A DNA stretch of 64,000 bases, from assembly GCA_963402885.1 (NCBI GenBank), contig OY727097.1, positions 17,050,001-17,114,000 of the forward strand, written 5' to 3'. This stretch comes from Antedon bifida (taxonomy: Eukaryota; Echinodermata; Crinoidea; Comatulida; Antedonidae). The translations under genes and the position numbers were made by a program. Below, piece by piece: positions 8,101-57,730 of this stretch; the first letter of the stretch is position 1, and each line of letters begins with the position of its first letter. The notes under the pieces are model-generated. The model did no database searches, was not told the origin of the DNA, and saw only the letters and a program-made list of their open reading frames with translations.

Positions 8101-9083
8101 TCTTTACTTTCATACATTACTAATTGTTATTATTTCACTTATTTTCCAGGGCAAACAAAACAAACGATGAATTTGCATTTGCTGACACACCTGACTGATG
8201 TGTGCAGGATGTTTCTTGTTTTGGGTTTGAATCAATGAATGCCTTCTTAAAGAAAATGGTACATGGATCGAGATTTGTTAATAGCCAAGTAAGGATCTTG
8301 ATTTGCAACGTTGTATCGGATACATGATTTATATAGTATGTTAGTTATACATACAATTACAATCATGATGACTCTGATTTGTTTATTTAACTTATATATA
8401 TATATATATTTTATGTTTGACTAATATAGATTTCATTTGCTGTTGGTATGGCAAAGGGCCTACCATCATTGGTTACAAATATTATCGGGGAAAGTGATCC
8501 GGTTATGACAACTTTGCTTAAGCAGTTGTCCGTTAAGTTCCTGAGGTAAGTTAAAGTAGAAATTGGTATACGTATGTAATTCAGTTAAAACAGTTTACAC
8601 TATATTTTACCAAAAAACAAGCTAACAATGTATATATATATATATTTTAGAGATGACTGTCAGTGTGCTGAAGAAACGACTAGTCGTATTTTACCTATCA
8701 CAGAAAACTGTGCTCATTTTGAATTAATTTCAAAAGTGCAATACACTGGGCAATTCAACCGCTATATGAAAGGAGGAAACACATTTACTTGTGCGGGTAC
8801 TGAAATTAGCAAGAGGAGAAGTAATTGCAGTGTTGTGTTTAGGAACGAAGAGAATGAGGATAGCTGTGGTCAGATAGTTAATTTTATTTCCACGGATATG
8901 TGCCCATATGTGATCATCCAAGAATACCACAATGTATCTAAGATTGTAAACCACATTCATTCAGTAAGGCCTGGGCAGATAATAATGTTACCAGTGTCGT
9001 GTATCCGATATAATTGTCTGTTCATTTACATAAATGATCAAATATATGTATCTGTTCCTAGGAACTTGTTGGAACACGATTAA
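5136..9083 (+). pseudogene. EnSpm/CACTA-like transposase gene, ten exons, broken
   Basis: This is a DDE-type transposase of the EnSpm/CACTA superfamily (Transposase_21-like), which would cut and paste its own element. Exons by GT/AG borders: 5136-5856, 5989-6126, 6268-6349, 6958-~7203, 7306-7476, 7620-7713, 7804-8001, 8150-8288, 8430-8545 and 8651-9083 (stop TAA). The start is the ATG at 5136. The first exon has a basic KKRKRRY segment, a Ser tract and a zinc-ribbon-like CDHC...CLCGG. Family landmarks follow in order: DGVSIFKSWNKSLWPV and INELP; KQFNGKYGCNYCLAPG; FTIDWMHCVLLGISKQLL; SEYREWLVHFSIPVLKG; NLHLLTHLTDV; FGFESMNAFLKKMVHG. Breaks: an in-frame stop ends the fourth exon; a frameshift with loss of a few codons lies in the 8150 exon; the exon expected between 6350 and 6958 is missing and its place holds a repeat insertion. 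A short duplication (GTGGATATAATGACC at about 6869 and 6959) precedes exon four. A smaller relative is at 54755. Confidence 0.75.
6460..6646 (+). repeat. Penelope-like dispersed repeat inserted in the transposon, copy 1
   Basis: This block matches 52551-52735 almost base for base (shared words TGCTAACTTTTCTGGCTG and GAGATCCAGCCACTGATA) and ends in (TA)n. It occupies the place of an expected transposase exon, so it arrived after the transposon. The head carries a CTGATG...CCGAAA pair like the hammerhead core of Penelope-like elements; a 4-base insertion disrupts it in this copy. Confidence 0.65.
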
Positions 9084-9092
9084 ATGTTAGGA

Positions 9093-10580
9093 TATCGACC
9101 CCGAAACCTAGACTCAGAAATACCGGGATGGTGTCCGGCGGGGGATAGTTTACCACAGAATATTTGTCGTTTTTTTTTCAATATCAATTTTCCATATCAT
9201 ATCGACCCCGAAACCTAGACTCAGAAATACCGGAATGGTGTCCGGCGGGGGATAGTTTACCATTGTAAATATATGTCGTTCTTTTTTCTGTATCAATTTT
9301 CCATATCATATCGACCCCGAAACCTAGACTCAGAAATACCGGAATGGTGTCCGGCGGGGGATAGTTTACCATTGTAAATATTTGTCGTTTTTTTTTCTGT
9401 ATCAATTTTCCAAATCATATCGACCCCGAAACCTAGACTCAGAAATACCGGAATGGTGTCCGGCGGGGGATAGTTTACCATTGTAAATATTTGTCGGTTT
9501 TTTTTCCTTATCAATTTTCCATATCATATCGACCCCGAAACCTAGACTCAGAAATACCGGAATGGTGTCCGGCGGGGGATAGTTTACCATTGTAAATATT
9601 TATCGGTTTTTTTCCTTATCAATTTTCCATATCATATCGACCCCGAAACCTAGACTCAGAAATACCGGAATGGTGTCCGGCGGGGGATAGTTTGCCATTG
9701 TAAATATTTGTCGTTTTTTTTCCTTATCAATTTTCCATATCATATCGACCCCGAAACCTAGACTCAGAAATACCGGAATGGTGTCCGGCGGGGGATAGTT
9801 TACCATTGTAAATATTTATCGGTTTTTTTCCTTATCAATTTTCCATATCATATCGACCCCGAAACCTAGACTCAGAAATACCGGAATGGTGTCCGGCGGG
9901 GGATAGTTTACCATTGTAAATATTTATCGGTTTTTTTCCTTATCAATTTTCCAAATCATATCGACCCCGAAACCTAGACTCAGAAATACCGGAATGGTGT
10001 CCGGCGGGGGATAGTTTGCCATTGTAAATATTTGTCGTTTTTTGTTCCTTATCAATTTTCCAAATCATATCGACCCCGAAACCTAGACTCAGAAATACCG
10101 GAATGGTGTCCGGCGGGGGATAGTTTGCCATTGTAAATATTTGTCGTTTTTTTTTCCTTATCAATTTTCCATATCATATCGACCCCGAAACCTAGACTCA
10201 GAAATACCAGAATGGTGTCCGGCGGGGGATAGTTTACCATTGTAAATATTTGTCGTTTTTTTTTCCTTATCAATTTTCCAAATCATATCGACCCCGAAAC
10301 CTAGAATGGTGTCCGGCGGGGGATAGTTTGCCATTGTAAATATTTGTCGTTTTTTTTTCCTTATCAATTTTCCATATCATATCGACCCCGAAACCTAGAC
10401 TCAGAAATACCGGAATGGTGTCCGGCGGGGGATAGTTTACCATTGTAAATATTTATCGGTTTTTTTCCTTATCAATTTTCCATATCATATCGACCCCGAA
10501 ACCTAGACTCAGAAATACCGGAATGGTGTCCGGCGGGGGATAGTTTACCATTGTAAATATTTATCAGTTTTTGTCAATTT
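9093..10580. repeat. 14-copy ~108-bp minisatellite next to the transposase stop
   Basis: The unit begins ATCGACCCCGAAACCTAGAC, contains GGTGTCCGGCGGGGGATAG and ends in a T-run plus TATCAATTTTCCATATC. Unit starts are near 9093, 9201, 9310, 9419, 9528, 9636, 9744, 9851, 9959, 10067, 10176, 10285, 10380 and 10488. Copies are about 95% alike or better; one (10285) lacks about 15 bases. Unit lengths of 107-109 are not multiples of three, so the minus-strand open frames across it are artefacts. The array starts ten bases after the EnSpm-like stop codon, so it may be the element's subterminal repeat. Confidence 0.95.
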
Positions 10581-10807
10581 CAATATACATATCGTTTATT
10601 TGTGGCAATAGTAGGTCCATGTTTGCGTATCTGTCTGTTTAGTCACAACTTCTGAACGAATTTGTCCATTGACCTTTAATCCACACTTAAACTCCATTAA
10701 ATTGTATTACGTGATCAATGCGCACTTTTTATACTGTTATTCAATCAGAAATACACCATACACCAAGCCCAGTTCATGATCATGTCAAGATCGTTATCGA
10801 AAATAAT

Positions 10808-24291: not shown

Positions 24292-24455
24292 TTATCAAAC
24301 ATTGTTATGTGGATTATCTCCTAATCCCGGTGAGGCAGCACTGAGAAAAACGCAATCACAGTCATCGGATGCTGTTTTTGCAACTTCACGAGGTACTGTC
24401 AGGCCCTGGAAGAATACATCGTTAGGTCTTGGTTTAACGTCCATGCATTAATGTA

Positions 24456-25740
24456 CTACCGTATTTGGTTGAAACATTCTTTGCTCTGAACCGGCCAAAT
24501 TATGCTCGTTGGGGTTCACTTTTTATTGAAAAAATGAAGAATTTGGACTCCGCAGCATTAGCTGTTTTAAAAGCCAACAAGACGAACGAAGAAAACGTAC
24601 TCTAGAAGTCCAATAGATCTTACATTAGAGCAAACTGTTAACAGAGATGCTGCGTCATCGGCAACTGGAATTACATCTTTTGCGAACTCAGAGAGTGCAT
24701 TTCGTCGTTGGTGCGTAAGTCTCACTCAACAGAGTATGGCTGTGTCTGAAATGAAGTCCATGAGTGGAATTCAACACGGTGAAACACCAGCTAACCAGTT
24801 ACGTCGACGGAGGATTGAGAGAGATAATAATGATGTAGACAAGTTTCTCATTAAGCTAAATAGTACATGCAATCCATTTGCCACTGATTCACCAACCACA
24901 TTAGTAAATATTGCTACAGGTAAAGCTGTAAATGACATAACAAGTACATATTTGCTGGGAACACTACAGAGAGAAGCCCTATCACGACAGCTATTTCACA
25001 AAGAATGTGTTTTAGACGAAATAATATTATTAAAGAAGGTCAAGCGTATAAAGGTACGCAATTTTGCTGCTTCAAACATGAAGAAGAAATCGTTAAATGC
25101 AACAGAAGCTCTTGGTACAGCTGAAGGTGTTCATGATGCTTTTGGATACTTGTTATCAAAGACGACTACAGATTTGCATTATGTACTAAGTTTTCCGATC
25201 ACTGAAATACCACTAGCTATTGCACATTCCGATGGTACTCCAACAAAAACAGAGAAGGCAATTCTTGCGAAGATTTTAGAAAAAATAAATCTGGTTCACA
25301 TAAAGAAGATACTCCTGTGACCGACACAACTCTCTTTGATGGCGGACTTGTTCTGCATGAAGTTTTACCTCGTCATAATGTGTCTACATATGGGAAAATC
25401 GTTGCAGATATCATGATTAAGGTATGTTCAGCCAGTGGAAATTCTGTTCACCTGTTGCTGGACAAATATATAGAATCATCAAAGATGTCGAAAGATTAAA
25501 AGATAGAGCAGAACGCCAAGAACACATTCATTATAACAGGAGCGGATCAACAACAGCAAAAGAAAGGTATAGATCTATTATAGAATGGAGAATTTAAGGA
25601 AGCTCTAGCATAGAATGATCACTATGGTCCAATAATAGGTGACAAAACCGTATTCGTGTCACATGGTGGTAAATGTATCAAAATAAATTGTAACTTGATG
25701 GGTAAACTTGAAGTTAAGGAGACTGCCGACTTGCTGTCGT
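24456..25740 (+). pseudogene. PIN-like nuclease gene, N-terminal half, broken
   Basis: The sequence belongs to a large uncharacterised gene family of aquatic animals. Recognisable blocks are FFALNRPNYARWGSLF, then IDLTLEQTVNRDA, a long helical middle (24736-25320), and the first part of a PIN/FEN-like nuclease fold (HEVLPRHNVSTYGKI and LLDKYIESSK, where the family has DG-type acid residues and VWDxY). From the fold one would expect a metal-dependent nuclease acting on structured DNA or RNA; this is inference from motif order. The frame changes near 24600 and again near 25320 and carries stops after 25500, so it is not translatable here. The C-terminal half is 4.8 kb away at 30505-31644, after other genes and insertions. 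Confidence 0.6.
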
Positions 25741-25966
25741 GAATACATTCGTATATTTCATTTCAAGTTCCAATAAAAAGGGAATTGGCCGTGTGGATCT
25801 TCGTGTAATTCTTGTAGGCCCGGACCCAACGGGCATTTCTGGGCTACTGTCTGGTGCTACTGTCTGATCATTTTAAATAACATGAGGTCCGGTAAGTCTA
25901 TCCATTTGGTTTATTATTATTTAAATTATTAGTTTAAATTATGCAAAAAATAGCGCCACATTTTAG

Positions 25967-27302
25967 TTGTTGAGCATTTAAAAGCAGATCATTTCGATGG
26001 TTTTCACATATTGATTCAAAGCTTCATGATGGCAACGAAGAAATCAACATGCAAGCTCATTGTCGTTGAGCAATTCACCGAAAGAAAAAAAGACGCGGAA
26101 AGCAGTTACATTATGGGGATGCTCAGCGAAAGCATAAATGAAGATGACAAAGGACAAATCATCCCATGCTATATCAATGGAAACCTAGAGAGTGACGTGG
26201 CTCAAAAAGCCCTCGCTTTAGCGGTGGGAGACCGGTTCATCACAACCAATGTGATTAGAGGAGGAGACAATCTCCAGTACTTCCAAAGTAAACTATCATT
26301 CCTTTTCCAAATAATTTAAACATCTTATGTGAAAAATAATTCGTATAAAAGCATTACACGCAAAATCATTTATTTTTTAAGTCATTTTACTTATAATTTT
26401 AAAATATAAATCCAATTTTACAATTTGTTTTTGTATTTTGATTTTCAGATATTTACGAAAGTTACTAAATTTGCTGTTGACGATGTAGCAATACAAAAGT
26501 TCAAAACACCAGATTTTGTATCCATGGCGGAAGCCAAAGGTCTCCCGGTTAAGAGAAGATTGAGTTTAAATGGAGACGTTACAGAAGTAATTATTTTTTA
26601 TCATCGTACCAACCATGATTAATATGTCAATTATGTTTATGTTTATTTTATCTGCTGATTTTGAAGTTCCTTGCTAATAACCAAAAGTTTGTTTATTTGT
26701 TTTCCTTTTTATTTAGCTTGGAGAATTTGTTTCAACAACAAAATATAAAAGAAAGAGTATTAAATTGGAGTGTGATGATGTAAACATGGATATTGTACTC
26801 TGGGGGCAAGTGGCCGAGGAAGCAAACAAACTAGTCATTGGGGAAAACGTATCGATAACTGCCCTTATAAAAGAGAGTAATCGGTTGGTTTCGACACTTT
26901 CGAGCAAAATTGAAGTAAATATGAATTTAATATATTAATATACTACGTTCATGCATATTAGTGTGACAATGGAAAATGATTAGTACACATTTTTGTCCTT
27001 GGTAAAACATGACAATTGTACTTTGGCGGGTACATTGTATTAATGAAAAGTCAGAGTACATTCTCTTTTTAAATTGTATTTTTCAGGTGTCGGAATCTAC
27101 AGAAAAAGAAGGAATCGTTATTGGTATTGATGATTCCAATGGGTATGTAAATTTCAGACCACTGCTGCTCAGAGATTAAACAATATTAACTATTCCATAG
27201 TTATCGTCAATTGTTTATGCGTTTTTTTTTCTTTTAAGATACCCAATTGACATTGTCCTAGAAAGTGGGGAAACCATGCCCATACCAAAGCAGAATGCTT
27301 AA
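25967..27302 (+). CDS. OB-fold, RPA1-like single-strand DNA binding protein gene
   Basis: Five exons: 25967-~26286, 26449-26586, 26717-26914, 27087-27142 and 27239-27302 (stop TAA). Exons two to five join in perfect phase. Exon one joins exon two only if an inner acceptor (acgaaag, about 26462) is used. The third exon shows an RPA70-type OB-fold signature: KRKSIKLECDD, then VNMDIVLWGQVAEE and GENVSITALI. The fourth and fifth exons read like the start of a second OB strand set (GIVIGIDDSNG, PIDIVLESGE). Replication protein A-like proteins bind single-stranded DNA in the nucleus during replication and repair. Related proteins with this layout are multi-copy in marine invertebrates and some travel with transposons. 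It lies between the two halves of the nuclease gene. Exon one has a near-identical copy at 30942-31206. No promoter is recognised, and upstream exons are possible in 25745-25960. Confidence 0.6.
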
Positions 27303-27795: not shown

Positions 27796-30052
27796 GAATA
27801 CAGGTCAACCCGTACCCATGCCAACTCGTACCCACCAACTCGTACCAAAATTTTGGCTTACTCGTACCCAAAATATTGGCTCACCCGTACCCATCATTGG
27901 CTGACCCGTACCCAATTTTAATGCTATTTAAAGTATATTTATATTACATTTAAACTCAGTTTTATTAAATTTTTAGATACCAATCATATGTTCGATATTA
28001 TAATGGCAAAAACTATTGACCTAAAAAGTATAATAATATGTACAGACTCGTACGAAAAAAGCACAGCTTTCATCGTATTTGGGTACGTCGTATTTGGTCA
28101 AGTTAATACTTGAGGGCGCTGTTTTACATGGAAGATGTCAGTGGTCGGCTGTGCTGCATTCTATTTTTTTTTCATTTATAAATAGTTATTATTAATCTAT
28201 TATTTACTACGAATAGTAGTACACGAAAATTGAAATACCCACTAGTTTGTGATGATGAAAACTTGAATTATTAAAAGTAAACATGAATCTTATACATAAT
28301 TTGTATTTTCATTTTATTTTACAGATAATGAAGTAATGTGCTTTTTGAAAATCGTTTTAAAACTAATGGTTTTTGTTGTTTTGTTTTGCAAGTTTTGGAA
28401 AATATTAAACTGTTTTAACATTTCGAAAATATTTAATACATTTTTAAGTAGTCACTCGTATTTTAAAATCACGAAACTATTTAAGTGGATACCAGCCTCA
28501 TTGCTGCTATGAGCATTTAGTAGTAGATTATCTGCCGTTTATCTAGTAGGCCTATACAAATGACGGATGTGAGAATAATAATAAAAGGTAACCTCAAATA
28601 ATTCAACATTTAATTACAAACGACGACATTTGCTGTTATTACGTTTTCATTTTATAATGATTATTACTGTATTATTATGACTAAAAACCGAAATAAATAC
28701 TACAAAAACTTTAAAAAAAAATCATCTTATCGCTGACATATACGTAAGTACTCAGACACGTGTATGTAGGCCTTCAAAACGTTTATATTATTTTAGTAAA
28801 TAAGACGACATCCGTTGCCATGGAAAAACGATCGTAGTTCATTCATTTGTCTTATTTGACACATTATAGAATGCGTATTTTTTTTTTAGAAAAGGGAATC
28901 CCTCGTCAGCAAAAACACGTAGCTGTAAGTTATTGAGGAAATATCTACCAAAAATGTTTAATTACCGTAAACAAACAGATAATTTTACTGAATTATTTAA
29001 GAAAAAAAATAAATAGAAAACGATCATACGACACATTGCGTTGTCTATTTTTTGACACACTACAAATGGACCCGTACAAATGCGTTTTTTTGTATATTAA
29101 AGAGGAATCCCCATTCAGCAAAAACACGTAGCTGTTATAGAAGAAAATCTGCCAAAATGTTTATTTGCCTTACAGTACAACAGTACGTGTATATGATCAT
29201 TTCACTGAATTATTAATAAATAAAATATATGGAAAACGATCATACGTCATTACTGAGTCATCTCTTTGACGCCCTATAAATGCGTGTTTTTTATAATAAA
29301 AGGTTAATCCCGGTCAGCAAAAACATGTAACACGAAATCTACGAGTAATTCGACCCCATAGCCCTGCAGGCTTTTTGCTTAAAACAGGGCGTTGTTAATT
29401 CAACCAATTTTAAATATACCAATACAATAGAAATAATAATTACTTGATCGAATGTAATCAGGGAAGATAATTAGAATAAAATAAAAGAATAAAAATTGAT
29501 AAGTATAAAAGTATACGTTGTTGGTACTTTACCTGGGCTTAATTGAATTGTAATACTAACTATACAACAGTTAAAATATTTTTTATATTCTCTTACGTAA
29601 ATAAAAAAGACACATCAAACATACGTTTATAAAACTATAATACTACATTTAAATAAATTTTACAAATATATGTCTAATTAAACGAAGTTTACACTCAAAT
29701 CAATGGTCATTTTTATTAGCACACATTTCACCGAGACCTGTAAAATAAAAAAAAATTTAAATATAAAAATATTCACATGGCAAAGGCATACCACTAGTTT
29801 TGCGCCGATCAAATCATTACAAGTAATTATTCAAATTGGGTACGAGTAGGCCAAATAATGGGTACGAGTAAGCCAAATGCTTGGGTACGGGTAAGCCAAA
29901 TATTTAGGTACGAGTTGGCATGGGTACGGGTTGGTTTGGGTACGGGTTAGCCAAAGTGGGTACGAGTTGACCAATTATTTGGGTACGGGTTAGCCAAGTT
30001 GGGTACGAGTTGGCATGGGTACGGGTTGGCATGGGTACGGGTTGACCAGCAC
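27796..30052. mobile_element. 2.26-kb TIR element with GGGTACGAGT arrays and 10-bp target duplication
   Basis: CCACACACAG flanks both sides (27786-27795 and 30053-30062). The left terminus has GGTCAACCCGTACCCATGCC and several CCCGTACCC/CTCGTACCC words to about 27914. The right terminus, about 29838-30048, has a longer inverted array of GGGTACGAGT and GGGTACGGGTTGGC. A 9-10-bp duplication is typical of Mutator-like elements. No transposase is seen, so it would be non-autonomous. The interior carries a tandem repeat (28826-29330). Confidence 0.8.
28826..29330. repeat. ~200-bp tandem repeat, about 2.5 units, inside the TIR element
   Basis: Units begin near 28826, 29017 and 29231 with GAAAACGATCATACG, and each contains AATCCC..TCAGCAAAAACACGTAG. 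Unit spacing is about 190-215 bp, with moderate divergence. Confidence 0.75.
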
Positions 30053-30504: not shown

Positions 30505-31644
30505 TCACGACGTCATGCAAAATTAGCCATTTCTAACAAGGGCGATGTTGATAATCTTTCAAGCTCACAGCAAGAGGCAGACACATTACGAATACTTCAT
30601 GCCCTCCATGTGGCCAGTTTAGATAAAGAGGTCAAAATAATGTCACCAGATACCGATGTTATGTTGCTAGCATTAAGGTGATATCCAGACTTAGGACAGA
30701 TTTATTATTGATTATTGTTGATTATTAAGTTCATAAATAGACTTCTAAACAATAAACCATGTCACTAATTTATTAGATGAAATCAAGCAGCAGTTATATT
30801 ACTACACATTGACATTTTTGCGAAACACTACTGATATTAAGTTAAATTAAACTTCTACAGGTTGCTGTCACTGCCAGAAACACTGCTGGTAGTTAAATTA
30901 AATTTTAGAACTTCTTTGTTCACCTGTAATTATAAAAAATCTTTTCGATGGTTTTCGCATATTGATTCAAAGCTTCATAATGGCAACCAAGAAATCAACA
31001 TGCAAGCTCATTGTCGTTGAGCAATTCACCGAAAGAAAAAAAGACGCGGAAAGCAGTTACATTATGGGGATGCTCAGCGAAAGCATAAATGAAGATGACA
31101 AAGGACAAATCATCCCATGCTATATCAATGGAAACCTAGAGAGTGACGTGGCTCAAAAAGCCCTCGCTTTAGCGGTGGGAGACCGGTTCATCACAACCAA
31201 TGTGATAAATCCAATTTTACAATTTGTATTGTTGGCAACAAGAGGCACACTATACCTCTAAGACAAATCTATGAAGCAATAGGTGACAAGATGGTGAGAC
31301 ATCTCAAAAAGTCATGTGATAACGTACAATCAGTATTCGCACAACTGGGCATCACAGACACAGTTTCTTCTGAAATGAAGAGGACATTAGAAAAATTTGT
31401 TTGCTAGTGTAATGTACCAGATCCATCAAACTATGGATGGACAATTGACGACAAAACATACCGTCCTGTTGTAACTGAGCTTCCACCTGCACCAAAAGCT
31501 GTCCTCGAACTTGTCAGGTGCAAGTGTGCCAAAAACAGATGTTCAACCGCACGCTGCTCCTGCAAACGAGCAAATCAGAGGAAATATGTGAAAACACTCA
31601 ACCATACCGCCTCTGATTCAGAGCAAAGCGATGTTGAACTTTGA
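30505..31644 (+). pseudogene. PIN-like nuclease gene, C-terminal half, broken
   Basis: 30505-30676 encodes the acidic core of the family: SSQQEADTLRILHALHVAS and VKIMSPDTDVMLLAL, where E, D and the DTD triad are the likely metal-binding residues. A small exon follows cttctacag near 30862. From about 31240 the frame reads EAIGDKMVRHLKKS, then an in-frame stop near 31407, then GWTIDDKTYRPV, LPPAPKAVLELVRCKC and a cysteine-rich tail (CAKNRCSTARCSCKR), which is the family's usual C-terminus and could bind zinc. The exon duplication 30942-31206 lies inside and replaces family sequence. Together with 24456-25740 it represents one ancestral gene. Confidence 0.65.
30942..31206 (+). repeat. Near-identical copy of OB-gene exon one
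   Basis: This 265-bp block matches 25992-26256 with only a handful of differences. At its right edge it jumps directly to AAATCCAATTTTACAATTTG, which in the original copy lies about 150 bp further on (from about 26408) in the intron. The copy therefore carries an internal deletion that removed the donor side. It is embedded in the C-terminal nuclease half. Confidence 0.9.
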
Positions 31645-45927: not shown

Positions 45928-47829
45928 TTATAAATTTCTGTTGAAGCAGGCTCTAATGAAGTTGCATCTAGTAAGTTGACTTTGTTGTACAACTCTATCA
46001 AGTATTGATGGTATCTTCCGACCTCTTCGTTTACTTTGGGTTGTGTGAAAAGTAAGAATTTTTGTAGGATCTTCATTTTCTTTTCTAATTACATGTCCGA
46101 TCCAGTTGAATTGTTGCTTGTAGACATATTCTTCTAGCGGTTGACAGCCAGTAATTTTGTAGAGATCGTCATTATCAATAACGTAACGCCAGTCTATATA
46201 GTTTTCATCTGTTTCTTCATCTGAGGATATGTCTACATGGTTTGGTGGGCAGACTCTTTGAAAGCCATTCACTAGCATTCTTCTTAGGAAGGTTTTGTAT
46301 GTTGTGCTAAGTTTGGACATTTCACTTCCTGTTGCCCTCCAAGCATGGCAACCATAGGTGAGTCTACTCCTAACTAGACCATTAAGAAACATCATTCTTG
46401 TTTGTAAGTGGATCGTTCTGTTGGTAAGCAATGCTCTATTCTCTGCAAATGCTCCTTTGGCTGAATTGATTCTGTATTTTACTTCTTGATCTCCAATATG
46501 AACATCATTGTAGGTAGCCCATACACCAAGGTATCTAAAGTGTGTTACGTTGTTAATGTGTACGCCGCCAATTTGTATGATGCATCTTGGGTATTCTTCA
46601 ACTTCCTCTTTCCAGTTCCATATAATGGTTTCTGTTTTGGGGGCACTAATTCTTAGACCAAATTCCAGACAAACTTTATTCAAGATGTTCACAATGGTTT
46701 GCAGTTCTTCTTGTGACCAGGAGCTTACAGCAAAGTCATCAGCATAGCCACTTTCAAAGTCGTCATAGATGCCCTTTGATGGTGCTTTACGTCTTTGAGC
46801 ACGATTTGTAGCTTCAATAGGAATTAGGTATTGTATCATTAGGCCATCCAAACTAGCATCTTTACAGCGTTGTTTGAACACTCTAATAACGTAATCAAAA
46901 TATTGGTTAAACATGCTGGTACTCTCAATACCACCCTGTCGCACCCCAGAAGATGTTTCGAACTTATCATCACTCGGATCGTCGTCAGCAAGGTATGCTT
47001 TCGTTGAGCTGTACAGTGATTGTATAATGTCAATCATAGTAGTAGACTGGTTTGAGTGAAACCTATTACGAACGCTTAGGAAAAGAAGATTACGATTCAC
47101 ATGGTCGAATGCTGCTGTTAAATCAATGAAGCATGTATAGAGTTTGCGATTTGAGCGATACGCAATTTCCTGGATCTGCTTGATTACATATATAGCATCA
47201 TTGCACCCTCTGTTGGACCTGAATCCAAACTGTGTGCGTAGAAGTTGACTTTCATAAAAGATGGAAAAACGTGAAAGAATGATAGCCATAAGTATCTTTG
47301 AAAATGTAGACCCAATCGATATTCCTCTATACATTGATGGATCAAGTGGACTGCCTTTTTTTTTCCAAATGGTTGTTAATTTGGACAGTCCCCAATCACT
47401 TGGTACTTCTTTCGTTCTCCAAATTTCCTCAAACAGTCTATGTACATGGTCGACGAATACTGGGTTCTCTGTGGCGACTTGCAACATTTCAGAAGCGACA
47501 TCTAGGGTAGCTTTGCGACCTTTTAGATGTCCGATTGCATCAATAATTTCTTTCTTGGACGGAGGTTCATTGTCTATCTCAAATTCTGGTTGTCTCAGGT
47601 TGATAATATATTCTGGAGGTGTGCTAATTTCATCTGGGATTTTAAGGCTAGATTGGTCTGGATTAAAGTGATCTTTAAAGTGTTCACGTAATCCAGGACA
47701 TTTTATAGGCTTTGGTGCTTTTCTTATAACATCACCGTGCTCCTTAGCTTTTCTCCATAAATCAAATATTTTTCTATTTTGGTGGGCTTCATTTAACTTG
47801 CTTGCTTCTTCATACAAATATTCATTCAA
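45928..47829 (-). CDS. LINE reverse transcriptase, 633 codons, 5'-truncated
   Basis: This is an uninterrupted minus-strand frame. The fingers region is at about residues 135-190 (WRTKEVPSDWGLSKL, YRGISIGSTFSKIL). Reverse transcriptase motif A is at 234-245 (FIDLTAAFDHVN), motif B at 293-310 (SSGVRQGGIESTSMFNQY) and the catalytic YADD at 362-365. The connection domain contains FRYLGVW, and the C-terminus ends RRGRKIPSILDRVVQQ, all as in RTE-like or related non-LTR elements. The upstream endonuclease is absent: an in-frame stop lies just before the first codon (TTG), so the copy is 5'-truncated. The catalytic aspartates are all in place. The enzyme would copy its own RNA at a nicked target. Clade placement needs a tree. 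Confidence 0.85.
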   Translation of the reverse strand: MNEYLYEEASKLNEAHQNRKIFDLWRKAKEHGDVIRKAPKPIKCPGLREHFKDHFNPDQSSLKIPDEISTPPEYIINLRQPEFEIDNEPPSKKEIIDAIGHLKGRKATLDVASEMLQVATENPVFVDHVHRLFEEIWRTKEVPSDWGLSKLTTIWKKKGSPLDPSMYRGISIGSTFSKILMAIILSRFSIFYESQLLRTQFGFRSNRGCNDAIYVIKQIQEIAYRSNRKLYTCFIDLTAAFDHVNRNLLFLSVRNRFHSNQSTTMIDIIQSLYSSTKAYLADDDPSDDKFETSSGVRQGGIESTSMFNQYFDYVIRVFKQRCKDASLDGLMIQYLIPIEATNRAQRRKAPSKGIYDDFESGYADDFAVSSWSQEELQTIVNILNKVCLEFGLRISAPKTETIIWNWKEEVEEYPRCIIQIGGVHINNVTHFRYLGVWATYNDVHIGDQEVKYRINSAKGAFAENRALLTNRTIHLQTRMMFLNGLVRSRLTYGCHAWRATGSEMSKLSTTYKTFLRRMLVNGFQRVCPPNHVDISSDEETDENYIDWRYVIDNDDLYKITGCQPLEEYVYKQQFNWIGHVIRKENEDPTKILTFHTTQSKRRGRKIPSILDRVVQQSQLTRCNFIRACFNRNL

Positions 47830-48640
47830 ACATTAGCATTTTTATTTATTTATTTCTTAGTTCGTGTAAATTGAATTGAGGGAATTTTTATTGGATTAGT
47901 TAGATAATTTTTTATTTATTAGGTGGTTTTTCTAGTTGAATTTCCTACCTATTATTTTCACGATTTATTTTTATTTTGGTGGTAATTATGCATAATTACT
48001 CCTGTTATTGTTATTATTTATTTTTAGCATGTCTCGACTTAGTTCATGCTATTTATTTATTTAGTTTAGATTGTTTAATTATTAATATTTTTTATTGTAC
48101 AGGCTATGCTGGTACCTATATTTTATTATTATTACATTTTTGTTTAGAATATTATTTTTGATACATTAGGCATTATTTTTATTAATTTAAGACCTGTATA
48201 CCTTTTACTTCAAGAATAAAATATTTTTCTTTTCTCGTCTCATTTACTTTTATAATTTAAGTCTAAATAAATAAATAAGTCATTTGATTTAGCTAAAATT
48301 TTTGGGATGGGGGGAGGTAACCCTTAATTTGTGATTATAGTTAATTGACCTGTGATTTAGTGCTAGGTCTGTATTGGGCTGGTAGTACCCCTGTTCTCTC
48401 TGGGCAGCCAACTAGTGACAAGCAGAAATAACCATCAAACAACATCAGAGAGATGTTACTATCGCTCGCTTGTTGGATGCACATGAGGGGGAAGGGGGTC
48501 GGGAGAGCTTACCAGATCTATAATGGACAATCAAATTAATTTAGAAGCATTTTCTTATTTTCCAGAGATGCCGAAAACTAATGAAAGGGAATAAAACACC
48601 TATAACCTTTAGGTTAATTTTGCTTGTAGGGCTAAGGATT
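47830..48640. other. No gene; T/A-rich with ATTT-type runs
   Basis: TTTATTTATTT and TAAATAAATAAATAAG runs flank this stretch, which adjoins the truncated 5' end of the LINE. No coding exon is supported. Confidence 0.4.
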
Positions 48641-55167: not shown

Positions 55168-55260
55168 GGATGTGCACTCGTGGAAATACCAAATTATAAA
55201 AGAAGGTGTGGTAAATTGGGGACTGAAGATCACAATGTGGACGTAATTTTGTGGGGTTAT
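55168..55260 (+). pseudogene. OB-fold exon fragment, third locus
   Basis: After the acceptor attatgtag the frame reads IPNYKRRCGKL and NVDVILWGYV, matching KYKRKSIKL and NMDIVLWGQV of the gene at 25967. It follows the EnSpm exon copy by about 80 bp. A decayed trace that resembles the end of the transposase (ATGATCAAATAAATGTCC, CCTAGGAACGAAC) is near 55627-55665, so the OB exon may lie within an EnSpm-type copy. Confidence 0.55.
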
Positions 55261-55679
55261 GTTAAACACTAATCTAAAATCATGCGCCTAAATAATACAG
55301 AAGTTGCAGTTATTGAACATTTTGCAATTGTAAAAACCTTGCTTAATGAAGACGGTTATGTTTGTTCGACACCTTGAATTGAAGAACACTAAATATGTGC
55401 ATTACCAATTTCATTGAGAGAGATTAATTTACAACTATTACCTCGATTTTATTGCATTGATCCATGTCATTTAAAGTTCTATCATATTCTATCAACCAAA
55501 AATATAAAATTATTGAATAATTTAGCAAAATATATTTGATTGTTCTGAAAAAAGACAAAGTGTATTATAACTGTACCGTATATAATTTTCAATTATACTG
55601 TATTTGGGCCAGAGGCCTCTATACATGATCAAATAAATGTCCTAGGTCACGTGCCTAGGAACGAACTATTCAAATATTG

Positions 55680-56340: not shown

Positions 56341-56741
56341 ACCAGAAGAAAGTCCAAGTTAGTGTTTTAGATCAAAATCTTTTTGGCGGAAGCCAGCCTG
56401 CAGCCTAAGCAATCAAAAAGACATTGCACCACGATACCCATCTGGCAAAGAAGAAAGGAAGGAATTACAATTGTACTATACACAGTGTTGCCATTGGCAC
56501 CCTATCCTTATAACTTGTGAGGCCTACCACCCAATAATGAAATTCGCAATGTCAGTATCGGCCAGGCAATGATAAATAATAAACTTGTATGCTACAATTG
56601 GCCTAATAAAAGTAGTGTCATAGACAGACAGACTGGTAATAACAAAGTATTAGTACCGTAACAGAAATTAAAAAAGTTACACTAGACTTTTGCTATTGCT
56701 AGTCCCAGGTTTTTTGTTATCAAAACTTAGGTTAACTTATT

Positions 56742-57730
56742 ATGTTAAATGTTATTTATAACCCATTGTTGGGAGCACTGGAAGGAAGTTTTCTCGGAAG
56801 GACCCATAATGGGTGGATGAACCAAGAGGTTTTCTTTGAGTGGATGGCAAATAATTTTTTCAAAAGTGTATCCGAAGCTGGTATTCCTTTCCTGTTTATT
56901 TTATTTTTTGACGGCCATTCCATGCACATGAATTTGGAATTTTACTTTATTGTTTTCTCAGTCAATGTAGTCATTATTCAACCTCTTGATTTATCACTTT
57001 TTTCTTCTTTGAAGTCATCATGGAGTCGTTCGTTACAAAAATTTCAATTCAGCAACCCGGGAGAAGCTGTCACTAAACAAACATTTTTTGTCTTTGCCCT
57101 CGCATGGATGCTACGAAGAAGATTGCGGTAAGTGAATTCCGGAAGGCTGGATTATTCCCTTTTCTGTAGAAGCAATAGATAAGAAGAAGTTCTCATAAGG
57201 CAGATGGATGAAGATGTTGCAACTGTAGGCGCTAACAAAGTCGACACCACTCTTGCTAATGGTTTCCATTGAGCACGCCGTCGTGCCATCCACCACAGCC
57301 ACAATCCCAATAACGTCCGCTAAAGAAACCCAATCAGAAAGGATGATGCCACTTTCAACTAGCCAACAAGTTCTGTTCTTGAAAAGCAAAAAGCTGTTGT
57401 TGTTCAAACGCCGCTATGAGTACCAAAAATGAAAGGTTCTAAAAAACGCAGCAATCAAGTCGTATTTTAAATCTATTACCGGTGAAGCATTCCCTCAGCA
57501 AAAATCCGATGACGAAGGACCAATCCCAACAACGTCAGGCAGAGAAAGTGCAGAACACTCCCCACTAGAACTTGTAAGTATTTAGAGACCACTTAAGTTA
57601 CCCCACAAAAGAATTGAAAGCCAAAGTGGTAAATAAAGCGATGCCCAAGGTGCTATCTGGCGCGCAATTTATTGCGTTCGCTGAGGCAAAGGCAAACAAA
57701 AGGGCAGAAGAGGATGCGGCAAAAAAATAA
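56742..57730 (+). pseudogene. Pogo/Tigger-type transposase remnant
   Basis: The 56742-57131 frame contains GWMNQEVFFEWMANNFFK, the catalytic-core strand FFDGHSMHMNLE (DGH with the usual SH changed to MH) and QPLDLSLFSSLKSSW, as in the DDE_1 domain of pogo, Tigger and CENP-B-like transposases. A few residues normally before QPLD are lost. In another frame, 57113-57200, follows VSEFRKAGLFPFSVEAID, the usual next block, and a Lys/Glu/Ala-rich C-terminal piece (QFIAFAEAKANKRAEEDAA) ends at about 57728. Frameshifts separate the blocks. The N-terminal HTH domains are missing. TAGGCCTAGGCC follows at 57760. Confidence 0.75.

What the first reader, a model, noticed from the sequence alone, without database searches (positions are those of the whole stretch)
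25967..27302. RPA1-like OB-fold gene between two halves of a PIN-like nuclease gene
Four of the five exons join in perfect phase and encode OB-fold signatures (VLWG, KRKSIKL). The gene sits inside a nuclease-family gene, and related OB exons recur at 30.9, 33.3 and 55.2 kb. Repeated association of a single-strand DNA binding protein with a nuclease and with transposase pieces is what a mobile system using ssDNA intermediates might show. That they form one unit is inference.
Basis: partly seen in the sequence, partly recalled or inferred. Interest (0 to 1): 0.75.

Follow-up and report, generated by a model that had tools for sequence, protein, structure and literature searches.

The report
Decayed Helitron RPA-like gene copy
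The OB-fold gene looks like a broken copy of a helper gene that some rolling-circle transposons (Helitrons) of this genome carry, and the two nuclease pieces around it come from two different elements, not from one split gene.

Summary
The OB exons are real: a copy on another contig (L012) matches 25870-27277 at 92.7%, exons and introns. The window copy is broken: 8 bp lost at the end of exon 1, homology lost in exon 5. The flanking nuclease "halves" are not one gene. The left piece is 77% and 71% identical in protein to L022 and L023; the right pieces match other subfamilies (L045, L061, L044, L049) and not L023. OB and nuclease are no unit: 1 of 13 other OB loci held has a nuclease piece in its flanks; 0 of 30 other nuclease records (23 places) has OB. 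The better partner is a Helitron. Four Helitrons on three contigs carry a homologous OB gene 7,987-8,028 bp from the Rep-domain start, same strand. Its homology to the window type is clear (49/155 identities, 0 of 2000 shuffles as good, same introns). But 23 of 25 window-type loci and 36 of 41 Helitron-type places have no listed Rep-helicase within about 6 kb, and the only fold model is poor and not an OB barrel. RPA-like genes in animal Helitrons are in print. Unexplained: in 11 of 12 copy pairs synonymous sites differ far more than introns.

The parts
25867..25890 (+). inferred first exon (ATGAGGTCCG|GT) of the OB gene; OB homology begins here
   Evidence: shared with L012, L015, L016 from 25865-25873 on; nuclease-element DNA ends at 25866
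25967..26287 (+). exon 1, N-terminal domain; 8-bp deletion near its end breaks the frame
26449..26586 (+). exon 2 (IFTKV...DVTE)
26717..26914 (+). exon 3, OB-like domain with KRKSIKL and VLWG
27087..27142 (+). exon 4
27240..27277 (+). start of exon 5; homology to the longer exon 5 of L012/L053 is lost after about 27277
30939..31230 (+). second, partial OB copy: exon 1 piece followed by 26 nt of intron 1
55177..55263 (+). remnant of OB exon 3 from another member (nearest L063)
24446..25721 (+). nuclease-like mobile element fragment, L022/L023 subfamily (not part of the OB gene)
25731..25866 (-). piece of the tandem array found 5' of the ORF in L022/L028, inverted relative to the nuclease fragment, abutting the OB copy
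30547..31575 (+). nuclease-like fragments (30547-30675, 31282-31404, 31411-31575) of another subfamily (nearest L045), with the partial OB copy between them

Best explanation
The OB gene is a decayed copy of the RPA-like accessory gene of a Helitron (rolling-circle transposon). In intact form (L063, judged by eye) the gene has at least five exons and encodes about 270 residues. The most likely job of the protein is to coat and protect the single-stranded DNA intermediate that the Rep-helicase makes (inferred from known Helitrons, not shown here). The window copy is a broken, relocated fragment: its 5' side abuts a nuclease-like mobile element and its last exon is cut. A short piece of it was copied 5 kb downstream, between fragments of an unrelated nuclease, perhaps as filler during break repair (inferred). 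Shown: homology, shared exon structure, linkage of some relatives to Rep-helicase, decay of this copy. Inferred: OB fold, ssDNA binding, role in transposition, the route by which this fragment arrived.
For: OB exons occur in about 26 places, merged by hand from 51 rows. Helitron_like_N gives 39 hits. REPA_OB_2 at E up to 0.1 gives 6 hits: one strong (C7, taken as host RPA1) and five weak, and 5 of 5 weak ones lie 4.8-5.0 kb downstream, same strand, of a Rep-helicase. Four of these carry OB exons 2, 3 and 5 at 7,987-8,028 bp (exon 3) from the Rep match start (one of the four is the query's own source, L065), and 1,102 bp from just before exon 5 on are 95-99% identical in the other three. Exon 3 of L065 matches REPA_OB_2 just under its cut-off (E 9.1e-6, 26.0 bits, cut-off 27). 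The window/L012 protein aligns to L065 with 49/155 identities, score 150 against a shuffle maximum of 69 (0 of 2000), and the introns on both sides of exon 3 sit at the same place. Window-type gene L063 is followed 5.5 kb downstream by a 951-aa Rep-helicase frame (Helitron_like_N and PIF1). L062 is followed at 1.4 kb by Rep-helicase pieces. C8:20.919M and C14:11.943M are found by both the window-type and the Helitron-type query.
Against: Only 2 of 25 window-type places lie within 6 kb of a listed Rep-helicase (shifted control mean 0.11; 10 of 2000 shifts as good), and only 5 of 41 Helitron-type places within 5 kb; the list of 45 Rep-helicases is a lower bound. The window has none in 64 kb; the nearest listed is 151 kb away. 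OB lies downstream of Rep-helicase in the four Helitrons but upstream of it in L062 and L063. No hairpin plus CTRR end turned up in the stretches scanned. Of the 1,102 bp the last 450 or so also match some 35 other places, so that part is a dispersed repeat. The OB fold of the window protein is not shown: no Pfam match, exon 3 alone hits only Sec2p at E 0.12, and the single-sequence model of exon 3 is poor (mean pLDDT 55) and helical.
Confidence: 0.7

Rival explanations
1. A host RPA1-like multigene family, expanded and decaying in this genome, from which Helitrons captured a member; the window copy is a host duplicate.
For: Most window-type and Helitron-type places are not beside a listed Rep-helicase (23 of 25 and 36 of 41). 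The genes have several introns, and L063 reads as intact.
Against: A separate, strong REPA_OB_2 exon exists at C7:3.97M. The Helitron-borne gene has the same intron positions and occurs with its Rep-helicase in four dispersed places.
Confidence: 0.2
2. OB gene and nuclease gene form one mobile unit.
For: They lie side by side, same strand, in the window and in L016; 2 of 25 places within 1 kb against a shifted mean of 0.07 (16 of 5000 shifts as good).
Against: 1 of 13 other OB loci with flanks has a nuclease piece, and 0 of 30 other nuclease records (23 places) has OB. Only 43 of 460 nuclease candidates were scored, so the control understates chance. The subfamilies differ between the two cases and between the two window pieces. 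Eight nuclease copies share a 5' end of their own.
Confidence: 0.03
3. The nuclease element prefers to land just upstream of OB genes, or both lie in a graveyard rich in mobile elements; the adjacency has no functional meaning.
For: Two adjacencies with different subfamilies and spacing; other mobile-element pieces in the window.
Against: Does not say what the OB gene is; compatible with the best explanation.
Confidence: 0.07

Closest known systems
RPA-like gene of animal Helentrons/Helitrons (PMC4067079, PMC4683698; passages seen)
   Same: Separate gene for an RPA70-like protein carried with a Rep-helicase in a rolling-circle element.
   Different: PMC4067079 describes an intronless 358-aa RPA with DBD-A/B similarity in the mite element; here the gene is split by at least four introns, about 270 aa in L063 (by eye), and only the L065 type comes near an RPA model. 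The Helentron endonuclease was not tested here.
Plant Helitron RPA (PHRPA; PMC4683698, passages seen)
   Same: OB-type accessory gene; the paper also describes an element with RPA but no RepHel, like the copies here that stand without one.
   Different: A plant-only clade in that paper; no sequence link was tested here.
Host RPA1 (RPA70)
   Same: LWG motif of the OB fold (recalled).
   Different: A strong REPA_OB_2 match lies elsewhere in the genome; the window family reaches no Pfam cut-off.

Membership tests
Helitron/Helentron RPA-like accessory gene | OB-fold, RPA70-related protein | tested here: inconclusive
   Window protein: no Pfam family; window exon 3 alone: only Sec2p, E 0.12. L012 exon 1: none; L063: only DUF4969, E 0.055; L062: PF01336 E 0.006, SHLD2_OB1 0.044, SSB_1 0.26; L019: SHLD2_OB1 0.13; all below cut-off. 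L065: REPA_OB_2 26.0 bits, cut-off 27. PDB: nothing useful. Single-sequence model of exon 3: mean pLDDT 55, two helices.
Helitron/Helentron RPA-like accessory gene | same unit as a Rep-helicase gene | tested here: not met
   Not met for the window copy (none in 64 kb). Met for four Helitrons at a fixed distance; 2 of 25 window-type places within 6 kb.
Helitron/Helentron RPA-like accessory gene | homology to a Helitron-borne OB gene with shared intron positions | tested here: met
   49/155 identities, 0 of 2000 shuffles as good; introns either side of exon 3 in the same place.
Helitron | 5' TC, 3' CTRR with hairpin, insertion between A and T (features from PMC4683698) | tested here: inconclusive
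   No hairpin plus CTRR in the L065, L012 and window stretches scanned; the element ends were probably not reached. 5' end and insertion site not tested.
PIN-like nuclease mobile element | conserved acidic residues of a PIN-like domain | tested here: inconclusive
   D, EEADT, a D-x-D motif and G-x-D conserved in L061, L045 and L049, but no convincing Pfam, PHROG or PDB match.
One nuclease gene split in two halves | both pieces from the same gene or subfamily | tested here: not met
   Left piece: L022/L023 type. Right pieces: L045, L061, L044, L049 at 34-45%; no match to the C-terminal part of L023, which was in the database searched.

The most novel reading that the evidence does not exclude
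The exons of this Helitron OB gene diverge by selection that acts on the spliced message, for example escape from host small RNAs that target transposon mRNA, so that synonymous sites change about 6 to 27 times faster than introns while the protein is kept. Copies with nearly identical introns would then carry synonymously recoded exons.
Probability: 0.06. Interest if true: 0.75.

Novelty: new member of a known kind. Interest (0 to 1): 0.35.

Why it matters
It moves the finding from a supposed nuclease-OB mobile unit to known biology: rolling-circle transposons that carry their own RPA-like protein. It adds intron-split members and many relics. The gap between synonymous and intron divergence, if it holds in more copies and in related species, would make a clean test of what drives synonymous change in transposon genes.

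Tried and rejected
DUF223 (PF02721, a domain of plant RPA-like proteins as I recall) gave nothing and its control rang nowhere. PDB and Pfam searches of the OB protein gave no useful match. Inverted repeats in seven nuclease loci: a few short pairs, none at the shared 5' end; the 3' ends are mostly not held. Composition as the cause of the exon/intron gap was not supported: fourfold sites differ more than introns for both A/T and G/C sites. Mosaic exon 1: of 32 informative sites 16 fit one nested tree by eye and no long tract stands out, but the rest do not fit, so exchange between copies is neither shown nor excluded. RNA families: none. Chance adjacency was tested with shifted positions. The one structure model (exon 3, single sequence) was too poor to use or to search with.

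Full report
What is there. The window is C10:17,050,001-17,114,000 of an unnamed 315.6-Mb genome in 27 contigs. The OB exons are present at the stated place and splice at GT..AG sites. A copy on another contig (L012) matches 25870-27277 at 92.7% with the same exons and introns. L012 itself lacks 2 bp in exon 2. A small first exon, inferred, ends at 25890.

Copies. Searches with exon 1 (11 matches) and with exons 2-5 (40 matches, E up to 0.05) give about 26 places when merged by hand; some are weak. Close copies besides the window pair are L012, L013, L014, L015, L016 and L053; more distant ones are L017-L020 and L062-L064. L063, about 160 kb upstream of the window copy, reads as an intact gene by eye. 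In the window, 30939-31206 is a 98.5% copy of exon 1 followed by 26 nt from near the end of intron 1. 55177-55257 is an exon 3 remnant; 33.3 kb has no supported OB exon.

The nuclease. The upstream ORF (24571-25317) has 56 matches in the genome. Relatives have open frames up to 1,700 aa and two copies are 98% alike in DNA, so it is a mobile family. Conserved D, EEADT, D-x-D and G-x-D motifs fit a PIN-like nuclease, but no Pfam, PHROG or PDB search supports it. The left piece is 77% (L022) and 71% (L023) identical in protein. The right pieces match L045, L061, L044 and L049 at 34-45% and not the C-terminal part of L023. They are two different elements. Nuclease-derived DNA ends at 25866, in an inverted piece of an array found 5' of the ORF in L022 and L028, where OB homology begins.

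OB and nuclease together. Of 13 OB loci outside the window held with flanks (L012-L020 with about 5 kb a side; L053 and L062-L064 with about 0.5 to 3 kb), one (L016) has a nuclease piece nearby, of the L061 type. Of 31 nuclease records with 1.5-kb flanks (24 distinct places), the only one with OB is the window's own. Genome-wide, 3 of 26 OB places, two of them in the window, lie within 1 kb of one of 71 merged nuclease places; counting the window once, 2 of 25 against a shifted mean of 0.07, with 16 of 5000 shifts as good. That is some excess, but only 43 of 460 nuclease candidates were scored, so chance is understated.

The Helitron link. Helitron_like_N gives 39 hits, 11 of them in open frames above 3,000 aa. 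REPA_OB_2 gives one strong hit (C7:3.97M, taken as host RPA1) and five weak hits; all five lie 4.8-5.0 kb downstream of a Rep-helicase on the same strand. One was fetched (L065): it holds three exons with the layout of the window gene. Searching with it finds four Helitrons (C8 twice, one being the source, C10, C12) with exon 3 at 7,987-8,028 bp from the Rep match start and with exons 2 and 5 in place (Rep starts). The 1,102 bp from just before exon 5 on are 95-99% identical in the other three; the last 450 or so of these also match some 35 other places as a dispersed repeat. Against L065 the window/L012 protein scores 150, L063 131 and L062 149, with no shuffle of 2000 as good in each case; the introns on both sides of exon 3 are in the same place. 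L063 has a Rep-helicase frame 5.5 kb downstream and L062 has pieces from 1.4 kb downstream.

Against it. Of 41 merged places of the Helitron type, 5 lie within 5 kb of one of 45 listed Rep-helicases, all on the same strand, one more at 13 kb, and 35 are farther or alone. Of 25 window-type places 2 lie within 6 kb. The Rep list is a lower bound (48 of 78 candidates scored). So the OB family is carried by Helitrons, but many copies, the window's among them, stand without one. They may be relics or captured pieces, or a host family may be the source. A single-sequence AlphaFold2 model of exon 3 (67 aa) is poor (mean pLDDT 55.2, pTM 0.34) and shows two helices, not a barrel; I give it little weight, but it does not support the fold.

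Literature. PMC4683698 (passages) says RPA homologs occur in Helitrons of zebrafish and sea anemone and in Drosophila Helentrons, and that an element with RPA but no RepHel exists in rice. PMC4067079 (passages) describes animal Helentrons with Rep/Helicase and a separate RPA ORF. The kind is therefore known. My searches (listings) showed no paper on this particular family; that is not proof of absence.

An unexplained pattern. Window against L012: exons differ at 63/747 sites (dS 0.25, dN 0.051), introns at 13/622. One search has 12 pairs with measurable introns, made from few and related sequences. In 11 of them dS is 0.25-1.0 against 2-9% in introns (nine pairs of the window group, and L062 against the two tandem copies of L064: 0.53 and 0.56 against 9%). 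In the twelfth, L012-L053, it is 0.063 against 1.1%, and exons as a whole do not differ from introns. Four further pairs had no intron to measure. dN/dS is about 0.09-0.22. The outer 20 nt of exons change little in some pairs (window-L012 7/194 against 56/553 in the middle; window-L053 5/118 against 19/173; L012-L016 1/64 against 54/293), but are close to the middle in L012-L013 (8/60 against 73/387) and L012-L015 (6/37 against 54/291). Other comparisons do not show the gap: L017-L020 (dS 0.18 and 0.00 against about 0.13), L064a-L064b (nearly identical); L062-L019 shows a small one (0.73 against 0.41). Intron alignments in L013, L015 and L016 are partial, which can flatter them; those of L012 are end to end. 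Base composition does not explain it. Upstream of the gene, L012 and L016 share short, closely matching blocks parted by large gaps, so introns are not the only conserved noncoding part. Known parallels are gibbon opsins, where conversion homogenises introns (PMC3213168, abstract), and exon switching in venom genes (PMC2474615, abstract). I cannot choose between conversion of introns, imported exons, or selection on the spliced message.

Verdict. Ordinary in kind, corrected in identity: most likely a relic of a Helitron RPA-like gene, lying among debris of unrelated nuclease elements. The exon/intron gap is the part worth a second look.

Noticed in passing
window OB gene against L012/L013/L015/L016/L053; L062 against L064: Synonymous sites differ about 6-27 times more than introns in 11 of 12 pairs; L012-L053 shows 0.063 against 0.011; not seen in L017-L020, small in L062-L019.
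   Followed up: partly
27803-30047: Foldback-like insert with tandem GGGTACGAGTTGGC-type repeats inverted at its two ends.
   Followed up: no
G000 C8:21.58-22.19M (17), C8:11.17-11.22M (3), C22 (1): 21 OB exon 3-like matches of 58 aa, most with the same score, on both strands, as if a larger recent repeat carries an OB exon.
   Followed up: no
L061 (C10:16,999,534-17,002,704); C7:20.48M, C11:26.45M, C12:2.35M: Mobile nuclease-like family with long open frames and recent copies, no convincing Pfam or PDB match; 8 copies of the L022/L023 subfamily share a 5' end near TAGACCGGGCGCCCGG, two of them with a variant.
   Followed up: partly
L062, L064, L017, window exon 4: After exon 4 the frame runs on as GYVNF.. 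or GYVNY.. to a stop in distant copies, as if a short alternative C-terminus were used beside splicing to exon 5 (by eye).
   Followed up: no
9064-10692: Tandem array with a period of about 108 bp.
   Followed up: no
56736-57128: DDE_1 transposase fragment (Pfam E 5e-6), about 1.5 kb from the OB remnant at 55.2 kb.
   Followed up: no
45928-47832 (-): 634-aa frame that looks like a LINE-type reverse transcriptase (recognised by eye, not searched).
   Followed up: no
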